A stretch of 34,108 bases of DNA from Clostridiales bacterium (GTDB lineage Bacteria > Bacillota > Clostridia > Oscillospirales > JAAYOS01). The notes below the pieces were generated by a model. It was not told where the DNA came from and searched no databases. It was given only the letters and a program-made list of their open reading frames with translations. Numbering within the stretch: the first letter of the stretch is position 1; every line of letters starts with the position of its first letter. The position numbers and the translations under genes were made by a program. Below are positions 1-17,584 of this stretch, piece by piece. The stretch spans positions 1 through 34,108 of the forward strand of contig JAAYOS010000141.1 of the NCBI GenBank assembly GCA_012520195.1, in the 5' to 3' direction.

Positions 1-14
1 AGGATGTATAGGCA

Positions 15-815: not shown

Positions 816-830
816 GGGAGTGGCAAGAGA

Positions 831-1931
831 ATGAAAGGGTATTCAAGCACAAATATAGATGATTTCAGAGGCGTCTGGGTGTTCTGTGAGCAACGCCAGG
901 GACAGCTCTCCGAGACGAACTTTGAGCTGATCTCTGAGGGAAGAAAGCTTGCAGACGAGTTGGGTGTTGAGCTTGTAGGGCTACTTCTCGGCGACGATAT
1001 CAAGCATCGTGCAAATGAGCTTGGAGGATATGGGGCAGACAGAGTTTTGGTCTGCGAAAGCCCCATGTTAAAAGAATATACCACCGATGCATACACTAAG
1101 GTTGTCTGTGATGTTGTTAAGGAAAGAAAGCCCGAAATACTCCTGTTTGGAGCAACAAGCATCGGTCGCGATCTCGCCCCGAGATGCGCTGCGCGCCTTC
1201 ACACCGGACTAACTGCTGATTGCACACACCTTGATGTGGATGTAAGAAAATACCTGGAGTATTTGCGTAAAAACTCTACTCTCAAAGTCGAAGAAGAGAG
1301 CTTCGATATGGAGGACAGAAACTTAAAAATGACGCGTCCAGCATTCGGCGGTCATCTGATGGCGACGATTATCTGCCCGCGGTTCCGTCCATGTATGTCA
1401 ACAGTTCGTCCCGGAGTGATGAAGAAAGCAAGCTACGATGAGGAGAAGGCGCGGAGTGTAATTGTTGAATCGTTGACGGTTTCCTTGTCCCAGGACGACA
1501 TAAGGACAAAGGTGTTGGAGGTAGTAAAGGAAACCAGAAAGATGGTTGACCTTGTTGGCTCAGAAGTGATTGTTGCTGTTGGCAGAGGAATAAGCAGCGA
1601 TGTGGAACGCGGTATTGAGCTTGCAGAACAGCTGGCAGATGCTTTGGGTGGCGTTATAGGGGCTTCACGTGCTGTAGTTGACGAAGGGTGGTTGCCCACA
1701 GACCATCAAGTGGGACAGACAGGCAAGACCGTGCGACCCAAAATATATATCGCGTTAGGAATATCCGGTGCCATCCAGCACCAAGCGGGCATGCAGGACG
1801 CCGAGTGCATCATAGCTGTAAACAAGAATGAAGCGGCCCCGATTTTCGAGACTGCAGACTACGGTATATGTGGGGATCTTTTTAGTATAGTTCCCTTAAT
1901 GATAGAACAGGCAAAGGCACAAAGGAGTTAG
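831..1931 (+). CDS. etfA: Electron transfer flavoprotein alpha subunit
   Basis: FAD-domain signature VGQTGKTVRPKIYIALGISGAIQHQAGMQDAECIIAVNKNEAAPIFETADYGICGDLF; immediately downstream of etfB. Confidence 0.96.
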   Translation: MKGYSSTNIDDFRGVWVFCEQRQGQLSETNFELISEGRKLADELGVELVGLLLGDDIKHRANELGGYGADRVLVCESPMLKEYTTDAYTKVVCDVVKERKPEILLFGATSIGRDLAPRCAARLHTGLTADCTHLDVDVRKYLEYLRKNSTLKVEEESFDMEDRNLKMTRPAFGGHLMATIICPRFRPCMSTVRPGVMKKASYDEEKARSVIVESLTVSLSQDDIRTKVLEVVKETRKMVDLVGSEVIVAVGRGISSDVERGIELAEQLADALGGVIGASRAVVDEGWLPTDHQVGQTGKTVRPKIYIALGISGAIQHQAGMQDAECIIAVNKNEAAPIFETADYGICGDLFSIVPLMIEQAKAQRS

Positions 1932-2007
1932 ATTGCAGGCTGTCAGGGAAAAACGTCCAAATGATGTGGTCCAGACCTGCGTTAAATCACAGGGAGGTTA
2001 TTACTAT

Positions 2008-3633
2008 ATGGAGCTATTTTACGGTGAGACAATCGGCAGTATGCTTCACCGGACTGCGACACTTTTCCCCGAAAGACCTGCAATTGAGTATAATGGGAGG
2101 ATCTGGACATATAGCGAGCTGGATGCTATTTCGGACAGAGTAGCTCGAGGTCTTATAGCAATTGGAATTAAAAAAGGTGAAAATATAGGCATATGGGCAA
2201 ATGACCGTCCCAATACGCTATTCTGCTTCTACGGGGCTGTCAAAATCGGCGCAATACCCGCAATGCTAAACACAAGTATGCTGCCCGGCGAGATAGAAAA
2301 GCTAGCAGTGGATGCTGATGTCAGATACCTCTTTTTTGACGAGGGGTGCCGTGATATAGACTTTGTGGGAGCCTGTAGAGATTTCAAGATTTTGCAGCTC
2401 AAAAAGGGAATCTACATAGGTGACGTGCATTCTGAAGGATATATGCACTCAATAAGCGATTTGCAGCCAAAAGGAATTTTCTCGCTGGACGATTTGATAG
2501 AGTGCGGGGATGCAGTTGAGGAGAAGGATTTGCATGCAGCAAAATCTGATGTGCAGGATACCGATTCCGATGTAATCCTGTTCACATCGGGTACCTTCGG
2601 GACACCGAAAGGTGTGGTGACAACACATTTTTCGAGAGTCAACAACTCGGTTGCCCAGGCAGAGGCGATTGAAGCCGCTGAAAATGACAAGATTCTCATA
2701 GCTACACCTATGTTCCACTGTTTCTCACTTTCAGGTAATATCCTCGCAGCCATGCTCGTGGGGGCGTGTGTTTATTTTCCGAAGAACAGAAGGACACGGA
2801 CCCTTCTGGATGCTATTGAAAGTGATAGATGTACCGTATTTTCAGCGGTTCCGACACTTTACTCGGCAATTATTGCTCGGAAAGACATTGACATGTATGA
2901 CCTAAAATCCTTGCGTATAGGACTTATTGGAGGTTCGATGTACTCCCCCGGGCTGTTTTTAGAAATTCGCGAAAAACTGAGGTTTAACCTGCTACCGTCA
3001 CTTGGGCAAACCGAGGCTACAGCGGGAATTACCGCTGCCATGACGCACGATAGTGAGGAAGAGCTCTCCAGTACCGTTGGGAGATTTTTCGATCATATCG
3101 AGGCTGAAATAAGAGATCCAATCACAAATACAGCTCTCCCGGATGGGAGTCCGGGAGAACTGTGTATTAGGGGATATAGTGTTATGCAGGGCTACTATAA
3201 TCGCCCTGACTTAACAAAAACAGTTATTGACAGTGAGGGTTGGCTCCACACTGGAGACACTGGATACATAAATGCTGCCGGCAATCTGGTACTAACTGGA
3301 AGACTGAAGGAGTTGATTATCCGTGGTGGCGAGAATATTGCCCCAGCGGAAATAGAAAATGTTATATCTTCGGACAGCAGAGTATCGGAAGTGAAGGTTA
3401 TTGGTGTACCTGACCCTCACTATATCGAAGAGATATGTGCATGTGTAGTTCACAACAACGGACAGATTATTACCGATGAAGATATTCGTCAGCTTGTGAG
3501 GGAGACATTAGCATATTACAAAGTTCCGAGATATGTACTGTTCTTTGATGAGTTGCCCCACACTCCCAGTGGAAAGATTGCACTTGGGATTCTTAAGGAG
3601 GCAGTGCAAGGCCGACTTGGTAAGGCACGATAA
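2008..3633 (+). CDS. AMP-dependent acyl-CoA synthetase/ligase (ANL superfamily), substrate unknown
   Basis: FTSGTFGTPKGV, GWLHTGDTGYINAAGNLVLTGRLKELIIRGGENIAPAEIE and PSGKI motifs. ORF is open from 1933, but ATG at 2008 (MELFYGETIGSMLHR) has an AGGGAGGT SD and fits the family N-terminus. Confidence 0.92.
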   Translation: MELFYGETIGSMLHRTATLFPERPAIEYNGRIWTYSELDAISDRVARGLIAIGIKKGENIGIWANDRPNTLFCFYGAVKIGAIPAMLNTSMLPGEIEKLAVDADVRYLFFDEGCRDIDFVGACRDFKILQLKKGIYIGDVHSEGYMHSISDLQPKGIFSLDDLIECGDAVEEKDLHAAKSDVQDTDSDVILFTSGTFGTPKGVVTTHFSRVNNSVAQAEAIEAAENDKILIATPMFHCFSLSGNILAAMLVGACVYFPKNRRTRTLLDAIESDRCTVFSAVPTLYSAIIARKDIDMYDLKSLRIGLIGGSMYSPGLFLEIREKLRFNLLPSLGQTEATAGITAAMTHDSEEELSSTVGRFFDHIEAEIRDPITNTALPDGSPGELCIRGYSVMQGYYNRPDLTKTVIDSEGWLHTGDTGYINAAGNLVLTGRLKELIIRGGENIAPAEIENVISSDSRVSEVKVIGVPDPHYIEEICACVVHNNGQIITDEDIRQLVRETLAYYKVPRYVLFFDELPHTPSGKIALGILKEAVQGRLGKAR

Positions 3634-3634
3634 A

Positions 3635-4477
3635 TCAGAGACAGTGAATGCAGTCTTCTGCTTCAAGATAAGTAACATCGATGCCTGGTACCAGAGGTGC
3701 AAGCCACTCCGCAAGGTACTTCATACCACATTCCTCGGTTTTGTGGTGCCCGAGCCATAAGGCGGCTTTTTTCAGACCAAGTGCCAGAGCGTCCTTCCAG
3801 AAGGCACACATTATCAGTTCATTTATATCTCCGAGAATTAGGAGATCGAGATCGTTATCCAACAAAAAATCGGTTGGCATGTTGGGGTCTCCGAGCCCCT
3901 GACCTCCGCCGCCAACAAGTACGCCGACCTTTTTGACCAACAAGTCGGGATTTCCAATAATGCGGGGAGCGTTTATTCCAAGTCTCTCCTTTACAAGTTC
4001 AGCAACGCTTCTTACGTCTGTTTCTGGTATTTCAAACTCATGATTATTTGGCCCAGGAATGTTGTACTCCTCCCATCCGAGCTCCTTCATCCAGCCCATG
4101 TAAATCATGTCTGGCTTTTGGTAATGCATACCGTCATGGAAGCGCCAGATACTGATTCCTGATTTCTCTATCAGGTCACGCTTCTCTACGGTCACCCTAT
4201 TGAGCTTTATAGGCATGGTGCGATCAAGGCCACCGCAGTTACTGGGCTCATGTGTAATAATCATGTCGACCCCTTCCTCAATGGCCTTGTAGATAACATC
4301 AACTGTGACCATAAAGGTTGTGCCGATCTTTGTAACTTCATTTTCAAGACTGCCGAAGTGGAGAACATCACAAGTAGGAACTTCTCTTGGGGTATCACTG
4401 AACGACATCTTTACAGTAAAAGTCTCCGGATAGGGCACTGCCTCCTTTATTGCAGAAATCACATCTTTTACCTTCAT
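3635..4477 (-). CDS. NIF3-family (Nif3-like dinuclear metal center) protein
   Basis: MKVKDVISAIKEAVPYPE..., VDMIITHEPSNCGGLDR and the GVLVGGGGQGLGDPN region; start placed at ATG 4477 after GAAAGGTGGAAAACT rather than the ORF-track start at 4522. Confidence 0.75.
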   Translation of the reverse strand: MKVKDVISAIKEAVPYPETFTVKMSFSDTPREVPTCDVLHFGSLENEVTKIGTTFMVTVDVIYKAIEEGVDMIITHEPSNCGGLDRTMPIKLNRVTVEKRDLIEKSGISIWRFHDGMHYQKPDMIYMGWMKELGWEEYNIPGPNNHEFEIPETDVRSVAELVKERLGINAPRIIGNPDLLVKKVGVLVGGGGQGLGDPNMPTDFLLDNDLDLLILGDINELIMCAFWKDALALGLKKAALWLGHHKTEECGMKYLAEWLAPLVPGIDVTYLEAEDCIHCL

Positions 4478-4551
4478 AGTTTTCCACCTTTCTAATTTGC
4501 TTTCGTTACTAATATTTCTCATTATAACAGAGTAATGATACGACTAAGATA

Positions 4552-4583
4552 CCACTGTTAACAAATAGTGTCAATCGCTTGAC
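4552..4583 (-). promoter_or_regulatory. Promoter-overlapping operator-like motif GTCAAGCGATTGACA upstream of the NIF3-like gene
   Basis: Plus strand TGTCAATCGCTTGAC at 4569-4583 (near-palindrome centred on CG). On the minus strand TTGACA (4569-4574), 17-nt spacer, TATCTT (4546-4551). Confidence 0.5.
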
Positions 4584-4677
4584 TTGTTCAAATGAGCAAC
4601 AATTGACCAGAATATAACCGTGTGTGTGGCGTTTTTTGCTCACAAGAATCATATGGAAATATTCTTTGGTTACATAT

Positions 4678-4692
4678 TGTCAATCGGTTGCG
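4678..4692 (+). promoter_or_regulatory. Operator-like motif TGTCAATCGGTTGCG upstream of the SASA-like esterase
   Basis: Same TGTCAATCG core as the other sites in this island. Confidence 0.4.
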
Positions 4693-4761
4693 TTTGGTAT
4701 ATTATATTTGTATACGTAATTATATCATCCTGTATACACAGAAAACGGAGGAAGATTCTAT

Positions 4762-6276
4762 ATGACATTATCGGTGGCAATGATTTTCGGAAACAATATG
4801 GTATTGCAGAGAAACAAGAAAATTGTGGTTTGGGGAGAGGCAGAAAGTGGCAGCTCCATTACCGTTAAGCTCAATGGCGTAACAGCTTCTGTTACTGCTG
4901 TAGAGGGCAAGTGGAAAGCTGAACTTCCACCCATGGAAGCATGCACCGGTTGCGAGATGCACATTGAGGATGACAAAGGGCAGTCGATCGAACTCAAGAA
5001 TGTAGCAATTGGAGAGGTATGGATTGCTGGCGGACAGTCAAATATGGAGATGGGGATGTACGCGGACGCGGATTTTGAAGAGGCGAAAAAAGAGGCCAAT
5101 AACCCCAATATCAGATTTTTTGACTATCCAAGGGTCTCCTATGATGGTCAGATGGATGCTGAGGATTATTCGGATTTCGGTTTCTGGAGGACTTTAACCG
5201 AAGAGGACATCGAGTTTTTCTCTGCGGTCGGCCACTATTTTGCGAAAATGCTTTATAACGAGCTGGATGTTCCGGTTGGTATTGTCGGCTGCAATTGGGG
5301 CGGATCCCCTGCTGCGGCATGGATGGATGAGAGCTACTTGACCGGTGAGTTGGAGTGTTACCTTAAAGACAATGAAGAGGTACTAGAAAACCTCGACATG
5401 GACAGATATGTCAAAGATTTCTTGACCGAAAGAGCTCGTATGAATTCACCAGAAGCCAAAGAGGCCATGAAGAAGATGATGAAAACTCCTATGCTCAAAC
5501 CTATGGAGTTCAACTTCCAGTTTGATGAGAGCAAAATGCGTGAGTTTATGAACGGCCCCTACTCCCCGTTCCGAGCATCTGGACTGTACCATACGATGCT
5601 AGAGAAAATAATGCCATATACAGCCGCTGGAGTCATTTGGTATCAGGGAGAGGCTGACACCCATCGTGCTAATCTATATGACAAGCTGTTTGGTGAAATG
5701 ATTCGCTGCTGGAGAGACGGATGGAACGATGAGAACCTCCCATTCCTTTTCGTACAGCTAGCACCTTTTGAAGCACTTATTGCAAGTAACTGCCAGTCCT
5801 TTGTGCCGGTAAGGGAGATGCAGGAGAAGGTATCGAAGACTGTTCCAAACTCATACATGGCATGCATTATGGATGTTGGCATGGAATTCGATATACACCC
5901 CAAAAAGAAGAAGCCTGTTGGAGAAAGGCTTGCACTGCTGGCACTGGCAAATGTGTATGATAGAGATATCCTCTGTGAATCTCCAGAAGCTGTTGGTATG
6001 CAAAAGACAGACGGTTCTGTTGTGGTAGAGTTTGAGTATACAGGCGAAGGCCTATATATTGACGGCGATAAGATAAATGCACTTGAGCTATATGTTGATG
6101 GTGGGAGTGTCGACGAGTTTACAGCTAGTGTGGACGGATCGAAGGTTAGGATTGACAGCCCGCATATAACAGGAGAGGCAAATGTTGAGGTGCGCTTTGC
6201 CTGGGTCGATTATTGTGTTGTTAATCTATACAACAGTGCTGGACTCCCTGCAAAACCATTCGTTCTGAAGGGATAA
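4762..6276 (+). CDS. Sialate O-acetylesterase-like / SASA-domain carbohydrate acetylesterase
   Basis: GEVWIAGGQSNMEMGMY (GxSN block), VGIVGCNWGGSPAAAWM, AGVIWYQGEADTHRA; AACGGAGGAAG SD before the ATG. Confidence 0.9.
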   Translation: MTLSVAMIFGNNMVLQRNKKIVVWGEAESGSSITVKLNGVTASVTAVEGKWKAELPPMEACTGCEMHIEDDKGQSIELKNVAIGEVWIAGGQSNMEMGMYADADFEEAKKEANNPNIRFFDYPRVSYDGQMDAEDYSDFGFWRTLTEEDIEFFSAVGHYFAKMLYNELDVPVGIVGCNWGGSPAAAWMDESYLTGELECYLKDNEEVLENLDMDRYVKDFLTERARMNSPEAKEAMKKMMKTPMLKPMEFNFQFDESKMREFMNGPYSPFRASGLYHTMLEKIMPYTAAGVIWYQGEADTHRANLYDKLFGEMIRCWRDGWNDENLPFLFVQLAPFEALIASNCQSFVPVREMQEKVSKTVPNSYMACIMDVGMEFDIHPKKKKPVGERLALLALANVYDRDILCESPEAVGMQKTDGSVVVEFEYTGEGLYIDGDKINALELYVDGGSVDEFTASVDGSKVRIDSPHITGEANVEVRFAWVDYCVVNLYNSAGLPAKPFVLKG

Positions 6277-6293
6277 CCTGTTACCCAACTAAT

Positions 6294-6333
6294 AAAGGAC
6301 ATCCTCCGGTTTGTTTTCGAGAGGATGTCCTTT
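6294..6333. terminator. Bidirectional intrinsic terminator between convergent esterase genes
   Basis: Perfect 13-bp inverted repeat AAAGGACATCCTC / GAGGATGTCCTTT with a 14-nt loop and flanking A/T tracts. Confidence 0.85.
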
Positions 6334-6342
6334 GTATTATTC

Positions 6343-7176
6343 TTAGAAAGGGTTGCCGCGCTGAGTGTCATCGAGCCCGAAGAAAGTAAGAGCTTTTTGA
6401 ATTGCTATATCCCAGAAACGCCATTCGTGGTGGTAGCCTTCAAGCTCAAACCATTCAGCGTCCAGATCAATCTCCTTAGCATGCTCCTTGAAAGCGAGAT
6501 AGTTTGGATATAGCATATCCTCTTTGCCGCAAGCAAACATGAGCCTTGGAAGCTTGCCAGTTCCAGCTAACTTGTCAATGATAGCCCATACGTTTTCATT
6601 TGAGTTTATATATGCCTCTAAGCCCCCGGCATTCTTGATGGTATTAACCATTCTGGGATTATCGGTATCCAATAGACCCGGGGCACCCGGACCCAGTTTT
6701 GAGAAATCCTGAGGTGCAGCTGACAATACGGCTGCTGCAGCGAATTTGTCAGGGTGATTAACCGCATATTTTATAGTTCCACGGCCACCCATAGACAGAC
6801 CAGCGATAAAGTTGTCTTCGCGCTTATCTGAAACAGGGAACCAGCCATAAATAAGGGGCATAAGCTCTTCGGTGAGGTAGTCAAACATTGAGAAACCCAT
6901 CATTGTGCTGTCCCAATTGGAGTAGTTAGAATTGAGCGCGGAAGGCATAACAACAACTAGGTCTTTTTCCGCGGCGTACATTTCAATATTGGTTTTGCGG
7001 AGCCAGTCGGTGGAGTCGCCAAAGGTGCCGTGGAGGAGCCACAAAACCTTGTATTTTTGGTTGTTGAGATAAAAGTCTCTGGGGGATAATGCCCGTGGCT
7101 TATCAGGAAGTATTACGGTAATCTGGTGGTTGTTCATTAGGTAAGCACTTTCAAAATTGTAGAAAAGTACAGACAT
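6343..7176 (-). CDS. Alpha/beta hydrolase, esterase D/tributyrin-esterase/feruloyl-esterase-like family
   Basis: NYKVLWLLHGTFGDSTDWLRKTNIE-type N-terminus, nucleophile elbow GLSMGG, C-terminal HHEWRFWD; SD CGAAGGAGGATTGTT. Confidence 0.85.
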   Translation of the reverse strand: MSVLFYNFESAYLMNNHQITVILPDKPRALSPRDFYLNNQKYKVLWLLHGTFGDSTDWLRKTNIEMYAAEKDLVVVMPSALNSNYSNWDSTMMGFSMFDYLTEELMPLIYGWFPVSDKREDNFIAGLSMGGRGTIKYAVNHPDKFAAAAVLSAAPQDFSKLGPGAPGLLDTDNPRMVNTIKNAGGLEAYINSNENVWAIIDKLAGTGKLPRLMFACGKEDMLYPNYLAFKEHAKEIDLDAEWFELEGYHHEWRFWDIAIQKALTFFGLDDTQRGNPF

Positions 7177-7193
7177 AACAATCCTCCTTCGTG

Positions 7194-8024
7194 TCAGGTT
7201 CTTTCAAAGAGATACCTTACAGCATCTGCGAACATTGCGCCCCATGATGTTTCGTGATGCATCAGTCTTGAGTCGGTAACCAGGATCACGTTTTTCTCGT
7301 CCATATCCTTTTCCATCAATGACTCATAACAGCGGACGGATGAACGAAGCGTAAACAGTCGGCGCTCAACGTCATTTCCCCCGGAGAGGATATAGAACTT
7401 GGAGTTTTTGATGCGGTCCCAGTCGTATGCTTCCATCCGTTCCTTCATAACATCCCATTCAATAAAGGAATAGGCCGGGGAAAACACAAGTACTTTGCCA
7501 AACACTTCGGGGTACTCCAATGCAATATAGTGTGAAATCATACCGCCCATGGAGGCTCCTCCGACACCTGTGTTTTCGGGTCCGTCAAGCACCATAAAGT
7601 TTGCATCGATAATGGGTTTTAGATGCTCAACGATAAAGCGGGAATACAGGTGCCCTGTCGGCTCCTCACCATTTAGCATGAAGTGGTCTTTTGTTGGAGG
7701 ACAGTCGGGACAGAGCTCACTTCCACGGTGCATGCTTGTATCGATTCCGACAACTACGATTTCGAGACCCTCTTCAGAGAGTTTCTTCAACGATTCATCG
7801 ACATTCCATTTTGGACGTCCGCCGGATTCAGGAAATAGTAACTGGGCATCATGCATGTATAAGATAGGGAAGCGCTTGACTCCATCGTAGCTCTCGGGAA
7901 GGAGAACACGGATGGTTCGAGTGCGCTTATCCGGGTAGGACTCCATCGTTGTATCAAAAGTAACCAGCTTCCCATAGGCTAGTAGGTTGTTGTGTTCGTA
8001 GTCCTTAATATCGATATTTTGCAT
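7194..8024 (-). CDS. Alpha/beta hydrolase, enterochelin esterase (Fes)-like
   Basis: VLLPESYDGVKRFPILYMHDAQLLF, nucleophile elbow GASMGG; start taken at MQNIDIKDYEHN (8024), just past the stop of the upstream gene. Confidence 0.82.
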   Translation of the reverse strand: MQNIDIKDYEHNNLLAYGKLVTFDTTMESYPDKRTRTIRVLLPESYDGVKRFPILYMHDAQLLFPESGGRPKWNVDESLKKLSEEGLEIVVVGIDTSMHRGSELCPDCPPTKDHFMLNGEEPTGHLYSRFIVEHLKPIIDANFMVLDGPENTGVGGASMGGMISHYIALEYPEVFGKVLVFSPAYSFIEWDVMKERMEAYDWDRIKNSKFYILSGGNDVERRLFTLRSSVRCYESLMEKDMDEKNVILVTDSRLMHHETSWGAMFADAVRYLFERT

Positions 8025-8029
8025 AATAT

Positions 8030-8983
8030 CTACAGCCCCATGCTTTCCAGCCATTCAGCACACAGCTTGCCCCAATGGGCCACATGTCTGTCGGCCAGAT
8101 CCAAGTCGTTTTCTCCATCGGCCAGTGCACATCCATGTACTCCCGAGGTGAATATATGCAGCTCGTAAGGCACGCCAACATCCTGTAGTGCCTTAGCGGT
8201 CGCCATGCCATGCCTGCCGTCGTCACTCATTGTCTGCCAGATAAAGAACGGCGGTGTATCAGGTGTGATACGTTTTTCAACCGCTAGCTTATAGCGCTCT
8301 TCTTGTGTCAACTCGCTTCCCGGACCCTTAAGCATCATACCAAATCCGGTTGGAAAAGTCATTGAGGTAAATGCACCGTACGCCAGCACCGCTGCATCCG
8401 GTCTACATGAAAAACGCTCAACCGGATCGTCCGATTCAGGATTTCCACTGTCGTAATTTGTGGCAGCGTTTCCTGACAACATCCCACCTGCGGAAAAGCC
8501 CATAACAGCGATCTTATCGGTTATTCCGAGCTCGTCCTTACGTGAACGTAGCAGTCTTATTGCCCGTTGCATATCAGCTAGTGCGTCAAATCTTGAGTAC
8601 GGGATTAGACGGTAAGTGAGAATTGCAACAGCAAATCCTTCTTTGTTGAAAAAGTCTGCTACATTAAAGCCCTCACAGCCTGTCCTAGTTAGAAATCCTC
8701 CGCCATGAGCTACGATAATGCATCCCCTAGGTGTTTTATTATCGGGTGCAGGGATAAAGATGATATTGGGTTCCGGCTGAAGGGGGGCGCGATCGTCATA
8801 ATTAGGTGCCCCGTCTTCCCATAGGGGAATCCACTCAAACCTGTCCATTACGCTGTTCCACAGCTTCAGATTACCATCTACATCCATACTTCCGTCTGGG
8901 TTTCTGTGTTTGGAAACATTTCGAATAGCTGCCCTTTCTTTTACTACTGAGGCAAGCACATCTCTGTTGTTTGAGAACTTCAT
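8030..8983 (-). CDS. Alpha/beta hydrolase (HSL/BD-FAE-like carbohydrate esterase)
   Basis: CIIVAHGGGFLTRTG (HGGG oxyanion motif), GFSAGG nucleophile elbow, C-terminal HGC; start at MKFSNNRDVLAS preceded by AAGGGAGATC. Confidence 0.82.
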   Translation of the reverse strand: MKFSNNRDVLASVVKERAAIRNVSKHRNPDGSMDVDGNLKLWNSVMDRFEWIPLWEDGAPNYDDRAPLQPEPNIIFIPAPDNKTPRGCIIVAHGGGFLTRTGCEGFNVADFFNKEGFAVAILTYRLIPYSRFDALADMQRAIRLLRSRKDELGITDKIAVMGFSAGGMLSGNAATNYDSGNPESDDPVERFSCRPDAAVLAYGAFTSMTFPTGFGMMLKGPGSELTQEERYKLAVEKRITPDTPPFFIWQTMSDDGRHGMATAKALQDVGVPYELHIFTSGVHGCALADGENDLDLADRHVAHWGKLCAEWLESMGL

Positions 8984-9018
8984 TTTGATCTCCCTTTCAA
9001 ATTGCCGGGATTGGTAAT

Positions 9019-9069
9019 TGGCAATCGTTTTCCTCAATTTATTCTATGTTACAGAACGCAATAAGTCAA
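9019..9069 (-). promoter_or_regulatory. Promoter plus operator-like motif for the minus-strand esterase operon
   Basis: Minus strand TTGACT (9064-9069), 17-nt spacer, TAGAAT (9041-9046), then GGAAAACGATTGCCA (9019-9033) at the expected transcription start. Confidence 0.5.
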
Positions 9070-9140
9070 GCGCAAGTATTCGTATGAGCGGTGCACGTTT
9101 TGTTGTGATATCACGGTCTGATGTCGATTAGGGATATAAA

Positions 9141-9177
9141 TGAAAACGATTGACATCTCCAGCAAATATGGTATAGT
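9141..9177 (+). promoter_or_regulatory. Promoter with overlapping operator-like motif
   Basis: TGAAAACGATTGACA (9141-9155) whose TTGACA (9150-9155) is the -35; 16-nt spacer; -10 TATAGT (9172-9177). Confidence 0.55.
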
Positions 9178-9221
9178 TTTATGCATAGTGAGCAAGTAAT
9201 TATTTAGGGGGAGCTACGCAT

Positions 9222-10415
9222 ATGGATTATGAGAAATTTTTAGACAGACAGTTTGTTATGACCGACGCAGGTCGTATTGATAGGGTTCGTGATCTCTATA
9301 CGACATTTAATCCTAAAGTAGACCTGGAAGCATTGAAATCCTGCGGGTATCTTGAGGCCCTAGAGGAGATGATGCAGCCAATACTTGATTGGCGGGATGA
9401 TCACTCACCAGAGGTTATTGCATATTGGGCAAAGCTCGGTATGGTAAAGGAGTTTCACGGCGAAGACGAGCCGATGAGCTGGACTGAGTATGAGATGAAG
9501 ACAGGCTACCGCTGGGAGGACCCCGAAAGACAGGGGATACAGAACCGGTTTAAAAAGTGGAATTCTTTCGTGCCGGTGTCTGCTTTCAAGCCAGAGAACA
9601 AGGATCGAAAATACCCGGCAGTTGTGGTCCTTCACGGTGGATTTAACCCCATAAGCATAATTGACGGTTGGGGATTTCCCCAGGAAGCGGCAAGACGCGA
9701 GTGGATTCTGATTGTGCCCTCTATAGAGTTGGATGACATCATCGATGAGATCCTGGAAGAGGCGAAAAAGCTGTATCCTATTGATGAAAGCCGTATATAT
9801 GCAACTGGTTTTTCCTATGGCGGATTCATGTCAAACTTCCTTGGCAATAAGCGCCCTGATGTATATGCGGCGGTGGGACCATGCGGAGCGCCAATCAGCA
9901 ACGGATATGTGGATAAGGCTATCGGACCGGAGCCGCAGACTCCGTTTGACGGCATTCCCCGAGCAATAGCTATGGGAACATATATGCCTATTATTAATGT
10001 TGCAGGAAACCTTGACGGTTTTCGATTCCCGTTGTACGACTACAAGGACTTTCGAACTGGTGAGTCGGGTACCAAGCAGCTGGTAGACGGAATAAACTCT
10101 TGGGCACGTGTCAACAAGGCAAAGGAGATTTCGTTGGACGAAGTTATGGCTCTGAAAACCAGAGAAGATATCTCTGATGAGGAGAAGCACATAGGCATGC
10201 CTCTTGAACCAGACTGCCGTAGAACCGTTGTTGCGGATGGAATAGTCAACTATATAGGAGATCTGAAGAGTGAGGACGGTATTGCACGTGTGCGTATCAT
10301 GTGCTCAATGAATATGCCACACTGGCCAACTCCTGAGATGAGCAGACAGGTTTTCGAATTCTTTTCCCACTTTAAGCGGGATCCAGTCACAAAAGAGAGC
10401 ATCTACATTCCATAA
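9222..10415 (+). CDS. Alpha/beta hydrolase / esterase (dienelactone hydrolase or PHB-depolymerase-like)
   Basis: KYPAVVVLHGGFNPIS, nucleophile elbow YATGFSYGGFMSN; SD TAGGGGGAGC. Confidence 0.8.
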   Translation: MDYEKFLDRQFVMTDAGRIDRVRDLYTTFNPKVDLEALKSCGYLEALEEMMQPILDWRDDHSPEVIAYWAKLGMVKEFHGEDEPMSWTEYEMKTGYRWEDPERQGIQNRFKKWNSFVPVSAFKPENKDRKYPAVVVLHGGFNPISIIDGWGFPQEAARREWILIVPSIELDDIIDEILEEAKKLYPIDESRIYATGFSYGGFMSNFLGNKRPDVYAAVGPCGAPISNGYVDKAIGPEPQTPFDGIPRAIAMGTYMPIINVAGNLDGFRFPLYDYKDFRTGESGTKQLVDGINSWARVNKAKEISLDEVMALKTREDISDEEKHIGMPLEPDCRRTVVADGIVNYIGDLKSEDGIARVRIMCSMNMPHWPTPEMSRQVFEFFSHFKRDPVTKESIYIP

Positions 10416-10544
10416 AGCATGGAATCGGGTAGGAGGCTACCCATTAGAGGTTGATCCTCTCAGCTTTGCTATCTAAAAAAGTACATCCTTTTCCACAACT
10501 TCTGCACATTAAGCAAGGACTTTAGCGTTTTCAAGCTACATGAG

Positions 10545-10591
10545 AGGGCGTGCCTCTATGGATTTTCAAAATCCATTTTGAGACACGCCCT
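10545..10591. terminator. Bidirectional terminator hairpin between convergent genes
   Basis: Outer arms AGGGCGTG / CACGCCCT enclosing an inner hairpin TGGATTTT / AAAATCCA; located between the stops at 10415 (+) and 10622 (-). Confidence 0.75.
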
Positions 10592-10621
10592 TAAATTCAT
10601 CTTAGGAATTAACTGCTGAGA

Positions 10622-12760
10622 TTACAACATACCGAACAGAACACTGAGTATGTTCTGAGCATAGTAACCGTCGCCGCAGCCGGACTTGCAGACCATAAGC
10701 CATGACACAAGTGCGGCGTTAACTAAGGCACCTAGCCACACGCTCTTTGTCATCTTAAAGAGCTTGCGGTTTATAATTACGCTGACAGGGATATAGAAAA
10801 GCATAGAGTAGGACAGGGTGAATTCACTGAAGCTGCGGCCGGTCCATGCCAAACGGGAAAGGAAGCTGCCCACGACAACCAGCCACGGACCCACAGAGTT
10901 GAACAGAACATTCATGACCAATTCTTTGCCTTCGGAAATATCCTTGCGTGCACCGTAGTTGATACCCAGGTTGATTGAAAGGTACATTATCGTAAAGAGG
11001 ATGAAGTAAGGCAGAGCAAAGAGCCAGCATTCCGGTCTCATCTCGGTAAACATGGACTCATAGAATCTGAAGTCCTGATTGAAGACACGCATTGAGATAA
11101 GCATCACAACGTAGCATAAAGCAACTATTATGACAGTAAGTAGTAAGGACTTGAAGAAGGCACCGGCGCTGATTTTCAATTTCAGCTCTTTGATATTTGC
11201 ACCAAGACGCAGCTTTTTGTTTACCAGAACCTTGGCAATGAATATCACTATACCAATCACTGCGCACATGATAAGGAACCAGAAGGGTATGGTGCTCGTT
11301 GCAACCAGAGCGAAGATATTGGGAGGAAGCTTTTTTGTAAAGCCGCCCGCCCAGTGAGGAGGCAGGTCATTATTGGCGTGACGCAGGGCAAGGAAGGTCA
11401 GTATTATGGTGACTGCGCCAAATATCCAGTAAGCTATCTTGCCGTTCTTGGATAGTTCTGCGGGAGCTTCATCTTCCGCTGACTTTGCAATGATGCCAGA
11501 GAAGAACTTAGTTTTAATAAGCAAGCCGACAATGGGGAATATCATGCCGACCATAGCGCACATGGCTAAAAAGTTGCAGAAAGCGCGGAGAAGCCATGTC
11601 TGGCTTGTGTTTGCAAGAGGCACGGTAGAGGGGTCGGTCAGATTACCCCTGTTGTAGTTCAGGGCCTGAGATATGGTCTCCAGGTAAAGTCTTATAGCTT
11701 CATGGCTGAAATAAAGACCGCAGTGGTCAACAGGAGCGTAGCAGACCATACGTGCGTTTTTGTTCTGGAGGACAGTTGCCAGTTCTTTGTTGTTCAGGAT
11801 GGTTTCAGTATCCATTGAGCCGATATCCGTGAGCTCGGACCCATCCAGTGAAGCTTTATACCAATGAGCGATATTGACGCCGCCCATTACAGCTTCGGTG
11901 GTTGTGCCATCCTTATTCCAAGTGGCACCGGCGCCCAGGTCATCATACATACCGCTGACCATAATTATATTGCACTGGCATGCTCTGGTCACCTTATGTC
12001 CGGCGACTTCAACCTCTTTAGGTCTGGGGTCGCTTCCGATGATTACCTTGATGCGAGTGTTGAAGTACTGCTCTTTTTCAGCGCGGATAGCATTATAGCG
12101 CTCGAGCTGGTCTGCATTAAGACGTTCAGACGCAAGCTCGTCTGCGTCCATATTGATTTCCTCTTCAGTAAAGGTCTCGCCGAAGGTATCTGCCAGAACA
12201 TTTATCAGTATGTCGTTCAGGGTATAGTAGCCGCTGTCAGTAGCAGCCACATAACCGACACGGCTCGCACCCATGGAGTGGCCATACATTGCAATACGTT
12301 CTGGGTCAACATATTTGAGAGTGCGGGCAAAATCAAGTGCGTCATTCTGTCCGAAACTGCCGCCGCCTGCCCAGGCAAAGCCTGCTGCGCCCTTGCCCGT
12401 TTCGTCGCTGATTGGCTGCTCGCTCATGCCCTGGCCGTAGGAGTCAACATTGAGCACCACGTAGCCGCGTTTGGCAAATTCCTCGGCGATGCCCTTCATT
12501 GCACCTCTGTTTGTGCCTCTGCCGTGTGCAAGCATAATGCAGGGCAGCTTGTCACCATCTGAAACCCCGGCCGGAACATACTGGTCTATACGTATCTCAG
12601 CACCGCGGGAATCGATTGTCAGCGTAGAGATTTTGACTTTTCCGCCGTTGGAGGAGATTATTGCACCTAAGAAGCCAAAGAGCATAATCAGGATTAAAAA
12701 TAGGATCAATAAGCGTCTGCATCCGTCGACAGTTTTCAGCGAGTATTTTGCGCTTTTCAT
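10622..12760 (-). CDS. Membrane-anchored alpha/beta hydrolase with C-terminal polytopic membrane domain
   Basis: N-terminal TM (LLILFLILIMLFGFLGAIIS), CIMLAHGRGTNRGAMKGIAEEFAKRGYVVLNVDSYGQG, nucleophile elbow MYGHSMGASR, then several hydrophobic helices to the C-terminus. Confidence 0.8.
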   Translation of the reverse strand: MKSAKYSLKTVDGCRRLLILFLILIMLFGFLGAIISSNGGKVKISTLTIDSRGAEIRIDQYVPAGVSDGDKLPCIMLAHGRGTNRGAMKGIAEEFAKRGYVVLNVDSYGQGMSEQPISDETGKGAAGFAWAGGGSFGQNDALDFARTLKYVDPERIAMYGHSMGASRVGYVAATDSGYYTLNDILINVLADTFGETFTEEEINMDADELASERLNADQLERYNAIRAEKEQYFNTRIKVIIGSDPRPKEVEVAGHKVTRACQCNIIMVSGMYDDLGAGATWNKDGTTTEAVMGGVNIAHWYKASLDGSELTDIGSMDTETILNNKELATVLQNKNARMVCYAPVDHCGLYFSHEAIRLYLETISQALNYNRGNLTDPSTVPLANTSQTWLLRAFCNFLAMCAMVGMIFPIVGLLIKTKFFSGIIAKSAEDEAPAELSKNGKIAYWIFGAVTIILTFLALRHANNDLPPHWAGGFTKKLPPNIFALVATSTIPFWFLIMCAVIGIVIFIAKVLVNKKLRLGANIKELKLKISAGAFFKSLLLTVIIVALCYVVMLISMRVFNQDFRFYESMFTEMRPECWLFALPYFILFTIMYLSINLGINYGARKDISEGKELVMNVLFNSVGPWLVVVGSFLSRLAWTGRSFSEFTLSYSMLFYIPVSVIINRKLFKMTKSVWLGALVNAALVSWLMVCKSGCGDGYYAQNILSVLFGML

Positions 12761-12811
12761 GTTTCTCTTTTTCCCCTTTCAGAAAACATATTTTTCGATT
12801 ATATCAAATAC

Positions 12812-12934
12812 TCAGACAAGCTCTTTCACCAAAGCCTCAAACTCGTCCATGTATCCAATATCCCAAATAGGTGAGCTTGTTCCGGAGTATTCTTTAAGAT
12901 TGATTATTAAATCCATTGCATAACATAAGTCAAT
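12812..12934 (-). pseudogene. Short 3' coding remnant, family unknown
   Basis: Minus-strand frame reads ...TYAMDLIINLKEYSGTSSPIWDIGYMDEFEALVKELV*, protein-like composition but no convincing start; an in-frame stop lies a short way upstream. Confidence 0.3.
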
Positions 12935-12980
12935 AAAACAAGTACTAATATTACTACACCTACACTAATTTATCGACATC

Positions 12981-13193
12981 TTATCTGATAATATTTGTTG
13001 AATTGAAATATTTTTGCATTAATAATACAATACTCATAACTGATGAATATGTCAATACTAAAGTCTTTGTTACCTTCGAAAGACCGTTTCCAACCACTTC
13101 ATCATATGTATATGTTTCTACGGCCATAATGATCCCGGCTTTTTTCGTTATGATACTGGTCGGACGATTCTTCAAATCGTATGTGTAGTTAAC
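12981..13193 (-). pseudogene. RHS/YD-repeat protein fragment
   Basis: Minus-strand frame contains VNYTYDLKNRPTSIITKKAGIIMAVETYTYDEVVGNGLSKVTKT, i.e. a YTYDxxxRPTSI-type YD repeat followed by a second TYTYD; no full gene around it. Confidence 0.5.
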
Positions 13194-13321
13194 TTCCGAG
13201 CTGTCAGCGCTGTGGCGGCGGTCGCGGACGAGGTGTTGAGAATGCGCGATAGCTGCCTTCTGCCGCCGGACGCCGCTCTATAACTTGGGCGGACTGGAAT
13301 GCGGAAAGTAGCTAATTACGA

Positions 13322-13382
13322 CCAAGAAACAGGTAGCATACCCTACGGCATAATGCCGTAGGGTATGCTACCTGTTTCTTGG
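13322..13382. terminator. 61-nt perfect inverted repeat, probable bidirectional terminator 3' of the LacI-family gene
   Basis: CCAAGAAACAGGTAGCATACCCTACGGCAT-A-ATGCCGTAGGGTATGCTACCTGTTTCTTGG, 30-nt arms with no mismatch; A-rich/T-rich outer arms (AAGAAACA / TGTTTCTT). Confidence 0.6.
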
Positions 13383-13437
13383 AAGCGCCTTTGCGGATCA
13401 GCATAAGTGTCCGACTATTCTAAATATGTAACGAACC

Positions 13438-14409
13438 TTACTTCGTGCTGCCCCTCACAATGAGTTCAATGGGCAGGATGGATTGGTTCGGCACCATTTC
13501 TCCCGAAATGCGCTTAAGTAGAATTTCCAGTGAAAGCTCGCCCATCTGCTTTATAGGTTGTGCAATCGTTGATATATTGAAATAATCAGAAATATCGATA
13601 CCGTCAAAGCCGATAAGTTGAAAATCCTTAGGAGCAGATAGCCCGTCATCAAGGAATTTCACATATGCTCTGGCAGCCAGTACATCACTGGTAGCGAAGA
13701 TTCCATCGACTTTTGGGTTTTTTTCCAAAATAACGTTTAGGTTTCTGGCAAAGCATTCGGCAAACAGGTCATTCTCATCAAGTAAATACTCGCGGTACTC
13801 TATCCCGCACCTTTCACACTCATCGCGAAACCCCTGATAACGGAAGCGAGCGGGTAGATACTCTCCTGTTTTGTGTCCAAACACGAGCGGGTACTTGCAT
13901 CCCCCGCCTATGAGTGTCTTAGCCGCGAGAACACCACCCTGATAGTTGTCGCATGAGACTGAGGGGACATTTTCGATTGTCCGCTCAATGCTTACCATGG
14001 GTAGCTCATACTCGGCATATATTGAAGCGTCCTCAATGCGGCTGCACATGAGTATGCCATCTACCTTATTGGCTCGAAGCATTGAAACCATTTCGCGCTC
14101 TTTCTCGGGTCTGTTTCCCGAGGTGCAGAGTAGCATTTTATACCCGTTTCTGTTACATGCATTTTCTATGGATTGTGCTAGTCTGCTAAAGAAAGGATGG
14201 TCGAGATAGGGAACAATTACTCCAATAAGTGTACTGCGCTTGGAAAGCAGGGAACGCGCAAGTTCATTCGGATGGTAATCGAGCTCCTCGATGGCTTTCA
14301 TAACCTTTTTTCTTGTCTTCGCGCTTATGGCTCCTCTATTGTTCATTACCCTAGAGACTGTAGTTACGGAGACACCTGCATGTTCCGCAACATCTTTGAT
14401 CGTTACCAA
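13438..14409 (-). CDS. LacI-family transcriptional regulator
   Basis: N-terminal HTH MVTIKDVAEHAGVSVTTVSRVMNNRGAISAKTRKKVMKAIEELDYHPNELARSL and C-terminal periplasmic-binding-like domain. Confidence 0.95.
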   Translation of the reverse strand: MVTIKDVAEHAGVSVTTVSRVMNNRGAISAKTRKKVMKAIEELDYHPNELARSLLSKRSTLIGVIVPYLDHPFFSRLAQSIENACNRNGYKMLLCTSGNRPEKEREMVSMLRANKVDGILMCSRIEDASIYAEYELPMVSIERTIENVPSVSCDNYQGGVLAAKTLIGGGCKYPLVFGHKTGEYLPARFRYQGFRDECERCGIEYREYLLDENDLFAECFARNLNVILEKNPKVDGIFATSDVLAARAYVKFLDDGLSAPKDFQLIGFDGIDISDYFNISTIAQPIKQMGELSLEILLKRISGEMVPNQSILPIELIVRGSTK

Positions 14410-14660
14410 GACATCACATCCATCATATTACTGATTAAGTGCAAAACCTATAAAACTCACTATATAGATTACTAGATAGTATACTATATGTTTGAAATTC
14501 CCGCAAGATTTTGTGACAGAGAGAGATTTTGATGCAAATCGTCTACAAATCAATCAATGGTTAACAGTAACATAATCAAGTTCAAAATTATTAGAAAAGT
14601 CTCAAAGTACCCATATTAATAACAAAATGCGTAAAGTGAAATGGTTTGGTGAAAACTAAG

Positions 14661-14697
14661 GGAAAACGATTGACAATATTAAGGAATAGTGTATAAT
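14661..14697 (+). promoter_or_regulatory. Promoter with overlapping operator-like motif for the solute-binding lipoprotein
   Basis: GGAAAACGATTGACA (14661-14675); -35 TTGACA, 16-nt spacer, -10 TATAAT (14692-14697); same layout as the 9141 site. Confidence 0.6.
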
Positions 14698-14746
14698 ATG
14701 CCTAAAGACCAACTGGTTGGCTAAATATAACAAGAGGAGGAAAAAC

Positions 14747-16429
14747 ATGAGTAGAAACAAGCTAAGGATTATTTCACTTGCATTAGCTCTTTTGATGTCG
14801 GTGCTACTCCTTCAAGGTTGTAGCAGTACGGAGAAGGAACCGGATACTGACATTACACCGGATGTAAGTAAGCCAACGCAGGCTCCGAAAGAAAGCGAAC
14901 CAAGCGATGAGCAGCCTTCACCCTCTGATGAAGTAACTTATCCACTTGCTGAGGGCGCAACATTCAAATGCTGGTGGCCAAACGATCTAGTGTTGTCGGG
15001 GGTGGAGGACTACAATGAAACACCGTTTTTTCAGTACATGGAGAAAAAGACAGGTGTACACCTGGAGTTTTCAAATCCGCCTGCACAGGGAGCCGTCGAG
15101 CAATATAATCTAATTCTCGTATCAGGAGATCTGCCGGATTTCTTCCGCCAGCTGTATATCTACCATGTTCGTGGGCTTGATGACGCAGTGGATGATCAAT
15201 GGATATTAGACATGATGAATTACAAACATTGGACTCCAAATCTAATGAGCAGGCTTGAAGCTGATGAAGAGGCATATATACAGGCAATTACCGATTCGGG
15301 CTACCTTGTTGGATTTCCAATGGTCATGGATGAGGCTCAGCAGTGGGTCAACGGTATGATGATCCGCGGAGACTGGCTTGATAAATATAACCTAAAAAAG
15401 CCAGAGACACTCGCTGAGGTTGAGCACGTACTCACTGTATTTCGCGACAATGAGGAAAGCGCATCCAGAGGACCCCTATATATGAACAATATGATCTTCA
15501 CAGGTCTGGAGGGCACGTTTAATATGCCTTCAAACTTCGATTTGCCTGCAATAGACGGTTTTATCTATCGTGACGGTGCTGTTCGGGCTTCCGCACTCGA
15601 ACAGGGCTATAAGGACTACATATTGACGATGGCTGATTGGTATGATAAAGGTTTGATCCATCCCGACTTTGTCAACAATGTCGGATACATTTCGATCTTT
15701 GACAGGGAGGGAAGACAGAACGGAAAATACGGCATTACCTATGACTGCTTTGTCTACTTAGATGATGAGAATGAGCTCGTAGGTGGTGACTTCCGGTTTG
15801 AGCCGTTGGCAATGCCGGTTGTCAATAAAGGCGATACGGTCCATGTTCTGGGCTCAGACAAGCTCGTATGGCAGGGTGCGCTTGGAATTACAACAGCTTG
15901 CGAGAACATAGAGCTTGCCTGTCGCTATTGGGACTACCTTTACTCGGATGAAGGTAGCCTTTATGCAAACTACGGAGAATTAGGCGTGACGCTGGAGTAT
16001 GATGAGAACGGCAATCCCCATCTAAGTGATTTTGCTAAGAACCATCCAGAGATGAATCTCAATCAGGTAGAGAACTACTATACACTGCTAGACGGACCAT
16101 TCTACCGTCACATGATGCGCGAGTTTGAGGCTATTTCGGAAAATGAGCTCAAATGCGGTGATGAGTGGACTAAGGGCGACGGTCTGTACAATCTGCCCTC
16201 CAACTTAACGTTCACGGCCGAAGAGGGTACAAGAAAGGCAAACATTATGTCGGATCTCCAGGTTTTTGTTGCTGAGAATCAGATCAAACTCGTAACCGGA
16301 GTAAAGCCAATCAGCGAGCTCGATGCGTTTATTGATCAGATCAAGGAAATGGGCATATATGAAGTGATTGAGATGTACGAAGCAGCTCTTGAACGCTATA
16401 ACAACCGCAAGAACCTAATTAATAATTAA
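14747..16429 (+). CDS. Extracellular solute-binding lipoprotein (ABC carbohydrate type, LplA/YtcQ-like)
   Basis: Signal peptide with lipobox LALLMSVLLLQGCSS and Ser/Pro/Glu-rich linker, then SBP-like body (YTDSGYLVGFPM-type, DWYDKGLIHPDF, NIELACRYWDYLYSDEG). Start at MSRNKLR after AAGAGGAGG. Confidence 0.85.
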   Translation: MSRNKLRIISLALALLMSVLLLQGCSSTEKEPDTDITPDVSKPTQAPKESEPSDEQPSPSDEVTYPLAEGATFKCWWPNDLVLSGVEDYNETPFFQYMEKKTGVHLEFSNPPAQGAVEQYNLILVSGDLPDFFRQLYIYHVRGLDDAVDDQWILDMMNYKHWTPNLMSRLEADEEAYIQAITDSGYLVGFPMVMDEAQQWVNGMMIRGDWLDKYNLKKPETLAEVEHVLTVFRDNEESASRGPLYMNNMIFTGLEGTFNMPSNFDLPAIDGFIYRDGAVRASALEQGYKDYILTMADWYDKGLIHPDFVNNVGYISIFDREGRQNGKYGITYDCFVYLDDENELVGGDFRFEPLAMPVVNKGDTVHVLGSDKLVWQGALGITTACENIELACRYWDYLYSDEGSLYANYGELGVTLEYDENGNPHLSDFAKNHPEMNLNQVENYYTLLDGPFYRHMMREFEAISENELKCGDEWTKGDGLYNLPSNLTFTAEEGTRKANIMSDLQVFVAENQIKLVTGVKPISELDAFIDQIKEMGIYEVIEMYEAALERYNNRKNLINN

Positions 16430-16507
16430 CTAGTGATAACTGCAACAGTAACTGCAGAAAGCCACCTCAAGTTCGAAGGCGAAGTCAAGCAATAACTTAA
16501 TACATAA

Positions 16508-16563
16508 AAACCGGAGCTATGCTTCTTCAGTGCTGATTGAAGTCGCATAAGCTCCGGGTTTTC
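16508..16563. terminator. Intrinsic terminator between convergent genes
   Basis: AAACCGGAGCT ... AGCTCCGGGTTTT inverted repeat with flanking A and T tracts. Confidence 0.7.
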
Positions 16564-16595
16564 ATTAACTACCTTTTCATTGACCTGGGTATACA

Positions 16596-17450
16596 CTATT
16601 GAATTGTGGTTGTGGTACCGCCTTCTAGCCGATACTTCTTTCCGTGTATTTCAATCCAGACCGCAGTGGCGCTGGGGTTATAAATAAACTTACCGTCTGC
16701 AGAATATCTGAGTGCTCTGAATGCATTTATATAGTCACAAATTTCAATGTTGGTGGCAAACCAAATCAAATCAGAGTACCGAGATACATGCTCCAAAAAT
16801 TCCTCAATAACATTCCAGTTGTCATCAAAATCAAACTCATATGAATGTCCCCAAAGGTAAAACAGCTGTGGACGTCTGAATGGAGTGTTATCCTTGCAAA
16901 ATGAGTTTGCTAGCTCCATAAGGTTCTCATCTTTGTGGTGGCATGTTGCTTTCCATTCCAGAAAATCTGTAGGAAGTTCAAATGTGCCGGTGGATGGTAC
17001 TACACGGGCGTACTCATAACCAGCAAGTCTAAGTAGAGCCTTAGCATTTTTGTTGTATGCGCCAAATGGATAGGCAAAGCCGCGAACGCAGCCCTCTACC
17101 AGTTCTTCCAGCCTTCTTTTGTCTTCGATTATCTCATACATCGCAGCAGGTGTTCCGACGTCGACGAGAGAAGAGTGATACAGACCGTGGCCTGCAACTT
17201 CATGGCCAGCATACAAGAACTTTACTTCATCTGCCTCTACTTTAGATACGTCGACTGGAGCTTTGCCAAAGTCTGCTGTGTCTTTGACTCCTAAGATACC
17301 TGAACCGATGTTGAAGGTTCCCTTAACTTTATGTCTGTTCATTAGCGCAACCAGCCTGCGGTCCTGTACCACCCCGTCATCGTAGCTTAGAGTAAGGGCT
17401 TTGGATTTCCCGTCAGGGAACAGCATTGTGTCAATCCTTGGTCTTACCAT
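16596..17450 (-). CDS. Polysaccharide deacetylase (NodB-like, CE4 superfamily)
   Basis: KALTLSYDDGVVQDRRLVALMNRHKVKGTFNIGSG, AGHEVAGHGLYHSSL, RGFAYPFGAYN. Confidence 0.85.
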   Translation of the reverse strand: MVRPRIDTMLFPDGKSKALTLSYDDGVVQDRRLVALMNRHKVKGTFNIGSGILGVKDTADFGKAPVDVSKVEADEVKFLYAGHEVAGHGLYHSSLVDVGTPAAMYEIIEDKRRLEELVEGCVRGFAYPFGAYNKNAKALLRLAGYEYARVVPSTGTFELPTDFLEWKATCHHKDENLMELANSFCKDNTPFRRPQLFYLWGHSYEFDFDDNWNVIEEFLEHVSRYSDLIWFATNIEICDYINAFRALRYSADGKFIYNPSATAVWIEIHGKKYRLEGGTTTTIQ

Positions 17451-17546
17451 CTATATTCCTCCCATAACATCTTATCAATAATTGCTCTTCAAGGGTTCCC
17501 ATACCTATTGAGCTGAAAAGCATGCGTCGCAATTGTTTATGTATAA

Positions 17547-17584
17547 ACGATAGCACTAGGCAAGAAAGTTGTCAAACGTTTTCT
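17547..17584 (-). promoter_or_regulatory. Promoter with overlapping operator-like motif for the deacetylase gene
   Basis: Minus strand AGAAAACGTTTGACA (plus 17570-17584); TTGACA, 17-nt spacer, TATCGT (17547-17552). Confidence 0.45.

What the first reader, a model, noticed from the sequence alone, without database searches (positions are those of the whole stretch)
4569..17584. Six-site LacI-type operator family linking the esterase island into one regulon
A shared motif GAAAACGATTGACA (core with central CG) occurs at 4569-4583 (-), 4678-4692 (-), 9019-9033 (-), 9141-9155 (+), 14661-14675 (+) and 17570-17584 (-). In four cases its TTGACA half is the promoter -35 with 16-17 nt to a -10; in the 9019 case the motif lies at the transcription start of a separate promoter, so -35 conservation alone does not explain it. 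The genes controlled would be the NIF3-like gene, the SASA esterase, the three-esterase operon, the 9222 esterase, the solute-binding protein and the deacetylase. Inference: the LacI-family protein at 13438-14409 is the regulator. No such site was seen upstream of the regulator, etf, aro or ger genes.
Basis: partly seen in the sequence, partly recalled or inferred. Interest (0 to 1): 0.75.

Follow-up and report, generated by a model that had tools for sequence, protein, structure and literature searches.

The report
LacI-type regulon of ester-sugar genes
Six short DNA switches in this Clostridia-like genome really do form one family that probably lets a single LacI-type repressor turn a set of sugar-ester-digesting genes on and off together; it is a new but ordinary member of a well-known kind of bacterial regulation.

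Summary
All six sites exist (the two + strand intervals start one base early). Exact GAAAACGWTTGACA occurs five times in the 2.45-Mb genome: three here, two before related genes elsewhere (C132 sucrose-phosphorylase-like operon, C168 carboxylesterase). The same-genus genome G001 has four exact copies, before SBP, carboxylesterase and Gfo/Idh genes; other relatives have zero or one. Equivalent promoters keep the site in both species. A matrix from G001/G003 sites ranks exactly the six reported sites first in the window; 4569 is individually weak. Most promoters use TTGACA as -35, but at the carboxylesterase promoter of both genomes the site lies reversed just after the -10, so -35 conservation does not explain it. 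The protein at 13438-14409 is the best regulator candidate: its 74% G001 ortholog is divergent from an exact site and has the same recognition helix. Binding, inducer and sign are untested. The regulon is wider than proposed: it includes a C132 operon that probably runs, across an assembly gap, into the window's etf/CoA-ligase genes, hinting at use of acylated (perhaps hydroxycinnamoylated) sugars. New member of a known kind.

The parts
4569..4582 (-). operator-like site of the DUF34/NIF3-like gene; TTGACA = -35, 17 nt to TATCTT
   Evidence: 3 mismatches, lowest matrix score of the six (12.5); a G001 DUF34/NIF3 homologue (36% identical) has TTAAACGATTGACA with an 18-nt spacer
4678..4691 (-). 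operator-like site of the SASA esterase gene, reversed relative to the gene; TTGTCA acts as -35, 17 nt to TATTAT
   Evidence: same reversed arrangement (TTGTCA-17-TATAAT) at the 73% identical SASA gene of G001
9019..9032 (-). operator-like site over the predicted transcription start of the three-esterase operon, after TTGACT-17-TAGAAT
9142..9155 (+). exact site overlapping the -35 of the 9222 esterase gene (16 nt to TATAGT)
14662..14675 (+). exact site overlapping the -35 of the solute-binding-protein gene (16 nt to TATAAT)
   Evidence: exact sites also before two SBP genes of G001
17570..17583 (-). site GAAAACGTTTGACA overlapping the -35 of the polysaccharide-deacetylase-like gene (17 nt to TATCGT)
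13438..14409 (-). LacI-family regulator, proposed repressor; recognition helix AGVSVTTVSRVMNNRG
   Evidence: Pfam LacI 82 bits, Peripla_BP_1 95 bits; 74% ortholog in G001
3635..4522 (-). DUF34/NIF3-like gene (target)
   Evidence: PF01784
4762..6276 (+). SASA carbohydrate esterase (target)
   Evidence: PF03629
6343..8985 (-). three-esterase operon (targets); first gene probably starts at the ATG near 8983, not at TTG 9037
   Evidence: PF00756 twice, BD-FAE PF20434; ATG after GGGAG in the DNA
9222..10415 (+). esterase of S9 / PHB-depolymerase type (target)
   Evidence: 87% ortholog directly after a site-bearing SBP gene in G001 (L225)
14747..16429 (+). solute-binding protein related to AlgQ1/AlgQ2 (target); probable start ATG 14747
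   Evidence: PDB sequence match to AlgQ2, E 9e-21
16596..17450 (-). polysaccharide deacetylase-like protein (target)
   Evidence: PF01522; 63% ortholog in G001
15..3633 (+). EtfB, EtfA, 4-coumarate-ligase-like CoA ligase; possible distal end of the site-bearing C132 operon (inferred across an assembly gap)

Best explanation
The six sites are operators of one LacI-family repressor, most likely the protein encoded at 13438-14409. Without its sugar ligand, the dimer binds ATGAAAnCGWTTGACA. At most promoters this covers the -35 (TTGACA, or TTGTCA when the site is reversed) and blocks RNA polymerase. At the three-esterase and carboxylesterase promoters it sits right after the -10 and blocks initiation. 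A sugar released from acylated oligosaccharides frees the DNA, so esterases, an oligosaccharide-binding protein, a deacetylase, a DUF34/NIF3 gene and, elsewhere in the genome, a sucrose-phosphorylase-like operon and a Gfo/Idh-AGE-KDPG-aldolase-KDG-kinase operon are induced together. Shown: the sites, their rarity, gene context, promoter overlap and conservation in a second species. Inferred: binding, the sign of regulation, the inducer and the identity of the regulator.
For: Window counts above chance. Whole genome: 5 exact sites, all upstream of ester, sugar or SBP genes. G001: 4 exact and 12 at <=1 mismatch against 0 in the reversed control; among the other 57 genomes at most one exact copy each is listed. 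The site is kept at orthologous or equivalent promoters in G001: carboxylesterase (86% protein identity), beta-lactamase-fold gene (85%), SASA (73%), a NIF3 homologue, SBPs, a sucrose-phosphorylase-like gene. In the aligned carboxylesterase upstream regions the site and its promoter stand out in diverged sequence. The central CG, AA at positions 3-4 and T, G, C, A at positions 9, 11, 13, 14 are invariant in 19 sites. A matrix from G001/G003 ranks exactly the six sites first in the window, five at >=17.7 bits where 0.3 false hits per 34 kb are expected at >=14. G001's ortholog is divergent from an exact site; its recognition helix and that of the paralog beside SASA/NIF3/SBP are the same GVSVTTVSR. 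The other four full-length LacI proteins of the genome have no close relative at site-bearing loci, and no match above 11 bits lies in the 9-17 kb stretches around them. All site-to-start distances are about 35-119 bp, within the 30-140 bp usual for LacI-family sites (PMC4052901).
Against: No binding or expression data. The site is only partly palindromic, whereas LacI-family motifs are described as palindromes (PMC4052901). No site lies in front of the regulator itself. The 4569 and 4678 sites are not significant by sequence alone. G001/G003 sites were collected with the same consensus, so the matrix test is not fully independent. Five of the 12 G001 sites at <=1 mismatch lie in coding or unrelated DNA. 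G003 keeps only two plausible sites and none next to its 60% identical ortholog.
Confidence: 0.8

Rival explanations
1. The operators are real but are bound by another regulator, for example a CcpA-like global LacI protein or one of the other LacI paralogs in the genome.
For: The motif resembles the generic CG-centred LacI/cre type; the genome has five full-length LacI proteins plus one weak HTH match.
Against: No full-length LacI protein reaches the CcpA cut-off (at most 178 bits against 442). Sites are confined to a few ester/sugar loci instead of being spread genome-wide. The other paralogs are not linked to sites or to site-bearing loci of G001.
Confidence: 0.12
2. The shared sequence is only a favoured strong -35 context (TTGACA promoters), not an operator.
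For: TTGACA or TTGTCA serves as a good -35 at most of the sites.
Against: The invariant CG and AA lie outside the -35; the carboxylesterase promoters of both genomes carry the whole site reversed, just after the -10, with a separate TTGACA -35 upstream; the 9019 site lies after its own -10. Other relatives largely lack the exact motif.
Confidence: 0.05
3. Only the strong sites (9019, 9142, 14662, 17570, perhaps 4678) are operators; the 4569 site of the NIF3-like gene is a chance match.
For: 4569 has 3 mismatches and scores 12.5 bits, a level expected 0.7 times per 34 kb.
Against: It overlaps a -35/-10 pair in front of a DUF34/NIF3 gene; the G001 NIF3 homologue has a site-overlapped promoter of the same design, also with a weak left half.
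Confidence: 0.3

Closest known systems
LacI-family local carbohydrate regulons (Ravcheev et al. 2014, PMC4052901)
   Same: LacI HTH plus sugar-binding domain; CG-centred operator about 35-119 bp before start codons; several operons of one carbohydrate pathway, regulator encoded among its targets
   Different: Arms beyond the inner AAnCGWTT are asymmetric; no site before the regulator; target set is dominated by esterases of many families
CcpA / cre carbon catabolite control
   Same: CG-centred LacI-family site near promoters of sugar genes
   Different: Confined to a few related loci; no LacI protein reaches the CcpA model cut-off
Caffeyl-CoA reductase (CarCDE) system of Acetobacterium woodii
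   Same: Best PDB matches of the truncated acyl-CoA dehydrogenase and of EtfA are CarC and CarE; a CoA transferase and a CoA ligase are encoded nearby
   Different: NCBIfam names EtfB and EtfA as acryloyl-CoA reductase subunits above cut-off; substrate unknown; presence in this regulon rests on an assembly-gap inference

Membership tests
LacI-family transcription factor (13438-14409) | N-terminal LacI HTH and C-terminal periplasmic-binding-protein-like sugar domain | tested here: met
   PF00356 82.3 bits, PF00532 95.5 bits, PF13377 75 bits, all over cut-off
LacI-family operator | central CG pair | tested here: met
   CG invariant in 19 of 19 sites
LacI-family operator | palindrome of highly conserved inverted repeats, usually 16-22 nt | tested here: inconclusive
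   only the inner AAnCGWTT is symmetric; arms ATGA / GACA do not match in register
LacI-family operator | located about 30-140 bp before the start codon | tested here: met
   about 35 to 119 bp for the six window sites (using the ATG near 8983 and ATG 14747)
LacI-family regulon with 13438-14409 as its regulator | the protein binds the sites and a ligand changes binding | not testable with these tools
   only linkage, phylogenetic co-occurrence and identity of the recognition helix
CcpA/cre | CcpA protein by curated model | tested here: not met
   at most 178 bits against a cut-off of 442 for the full-length LacI proteins

The most novel reading that the evidence does not exclude
One LacI-type repressor controls a whole pathway for acylated, perhaps hydroxycinnamoylated, sugars: many esterases split the ester, the sugar part goes through a Gfo/Idh-AGE-KDPG route and a sucrose-phosphorylase-like enzyme, and the acid part is CoA-activated and reduced by a Car-like acyl-CoA reductase-Etf complex as an electron sink, linking polysaccharide de-esterification to anaerobic respiration under one switch.
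Probability: 0.2. Interest if true: 0.65.

Novelty: new member of a known kind. Interest (0 to 1): 0.35.

Why it matters
It gives a testable regulator-operator pair for a group of poorly characterised esterases in an uncultured Clostridia-like family, and the regulon content is the best clue to their shared substrate. It also places DUF34/NIF3 genes, a family of unclear function, in a sugar-ester regulon in two species.

Tried and rejected
Genome-wide counts at 2 mismatches are at background, so no new targets were taken from them. The C202 match (GAAAACTATTGACA, before an ABC transporter gene) lacks the central CG and was treated as chance. The C80 and C164 matches (16 bits) lie in coding DNA or before a DegV-like gene and were not counted. 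Searches of the paper library for LacI regulons with feruloyl or acetyl esterases found nothing relevant.

Full report
Observation. All six sites exist. With the 14-mer GAAAACGATTGACA they lie at 4569-4582(-), 4678-4691(-), 9019-9032(-), 9142-9155(+), 14662-14675(+) and 17570-17583(-), with 3, 2, 1, 0, 0 and 1 mismatches. Ten matches at up to 3 mismatches were found where 3.6 are expected, and none of 100 shuffles reached 10. The core CGWTTGACA occurs 5 times where 0.52 are expected.

Whole genome. The window is contig C50 of a 2.45-Mb, 209-contig genome. GAAAACGWTTGACA occurs exactly five times in it: three in the window, C132:27159 and C168:4228. Two more sites have one mismatch and fitting context (9019 and C132:10989). 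C168:4228 lies 36 bp before a carboxylesterase gene (PF00135). C132:10989 precedes an operon of a beta-lactamase-fold protein, a Gfo/Idh/MocA oxidoreductase, an AGE-type epimerase, a xylose-isomerase-like barrel, an aldehyde dehydrogenase, a KDPG aldolase and a KDG-type kinase. C132:27159 precedes a sucrose-phosphorylase-like GH13 protein, a second NIF3-like protein and a BD-FAE-like protein. At 2 mismatches the genome count equals the reversed control (38 against 43), so weak sites need other evidence.

Conservation. The same-genus genome G001 has four exact sites and 12 at up to one mismatch, against 0 in the reversed control. Among the other 57 relatives at most one exact site each is listed (the list is truncated). 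All four exact G001 sites and three of the one-mismatch sites lie before genes of this type: SBP (two), carboxylesterase (86% identical to the C168 protein), SASA (73%), beta-lactamase-fold (85%), a sucrose-phosphorylase-like protein, and an operon with the Gfo/Idh (86%) and AGE genes; a two-mismatch site lies before a NIF3 gene. The 9222 esterase has an 87% ortholog directly after a site-bearing SBP gene. G003 (regulator 60% identical) has two sites on one contig carrying a 56% homologue of the 8030 esterase and a 52% homologue of the C132 barrel protein. The remaining five of the 12 G001 sites lie in coding or unrelated DNA. The other-species sites were found with the same consensus, so the matrix built from them is not fully independent; even so, it ranks exactly the six reported sites first in the window, at 26.1, 22.4, 22.0, 19.7, 17.7 and 12.5 bits, with 0.3 false hits per 34 kb expected at 14 and 0.7 at 12. 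The seventh match (33413, 11.7 bits) lacks the central CG.

Anatomy. In 19 sites the invariant letters are AA.CG.T.G.CA, with G and A mostly before and W, T, A between; the extended form is ATGAAAnCGWTTGACA. Only AAnCGWTT is symmetric. LacI-family motifs are described as mostly even palindromes with a central CG (PMC4052901), so this motif has the CG but not clear outer symmetry. Three geometries occur: TTGACA as the -35 (4569, 9142, 14662, 17570, both C132 sites, most G001 sites); reversed, with TTGTCA as the -35 (SASA in both genomes); and just after the -10 (9019, and the carboxylesterase promoter in both genomes, where the site is reversed and a separate TTGACA -35 exists). The last class shows that TTGACA belongs to the site itself. 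Coding starts are better placed at the ATG near 8983 and at ATG 14747 than at the listed TTG codons.

Regulator. The genome has five full-length LacI proteins and one weak HTH match. The window protein has a 74% ortholog in G001, divergent from an exact site, and a 51% paralog there beside the SASA, NIF3 and SBP genes. All three share GVSVTTVSR in the recognition helix. No match above 11 bits was found in the 9-17 kb stretches held around the other four, and none of them is a CcpA by curated model. The usual action of such proteins, repression relieved by a sugar (established knowledge of the family), fits operators over the -35 or the start site. Binding, inducer and direction are inferred.

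Extension. C132 ends, on its left, inside an acyl-CoA dehydrogenase gene that follows a CoA-transferase gene and reads outwards; C50 begins 14 bp before EtfB. The C-terminal acyl-CoA dehydrogenase domain is found nowhere in the assembly. In three relatives the order is dehydrogenase, EtfB, EtfA, with about 0.4 kb between the matched dehydrogenase part and EtfB. So reversed C132 probably joins C50, and the C132:10989 operon may run into the etf and CoA-ligase genes; it contains two gaps of about 130 bp, so internal promoters are possible. The dehydrogenase and EtfA match CarC and CarE best in the PDB and the ligase matches 4-coumarate-CoA ligases, while NCBIfam names EtfA and EtfB as acryloyl-CoA reductase subunits. 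G001 has no EtfA match. A link to hydroxycinnamate esters is therefore a hypothesis only.

Verdict. The finding is right in substance: a conserved LacI-type regulon of sugar-ester genes, larger than described, with one weak member site (4569). It is a new member of a known kind.

Noticed in passing
window 1-3633 with G000:C132:1-2427 (L242): Truncated acyl-CoA dehydrogenase and CoA transferase at the end of C132 and EtfB-EtfA-CoA ligase at the start of C50 look like one split Car-like (or acryloyl-CoA reductase) operon.
   Followed up: partly
window 13322-13382: Perfect 30-bp inverted repeat with a 1-nt loop just downstream of the LacI gene; single copy in the genome. Probably a terminator.
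   Followed up: partly
window 3635-4522; L172:4517-5329; L164:3116-3928: DUF34/NIF3-like genes recur in this sugar-ester regulon in two species.
   Followed up: no
L164:98-1165: G001 has a second LacI protein (51% identical, same recognition helix) next to site-bearing SASA, NIF3 and SBP genes: two paralogs may share one operator there.
   Followed up: no
window 4569/4678 and 9019/9142: Paired sites 109 and 123 bp apart in divergent intergenic regions could allow DNA looping.
   Followed up: no
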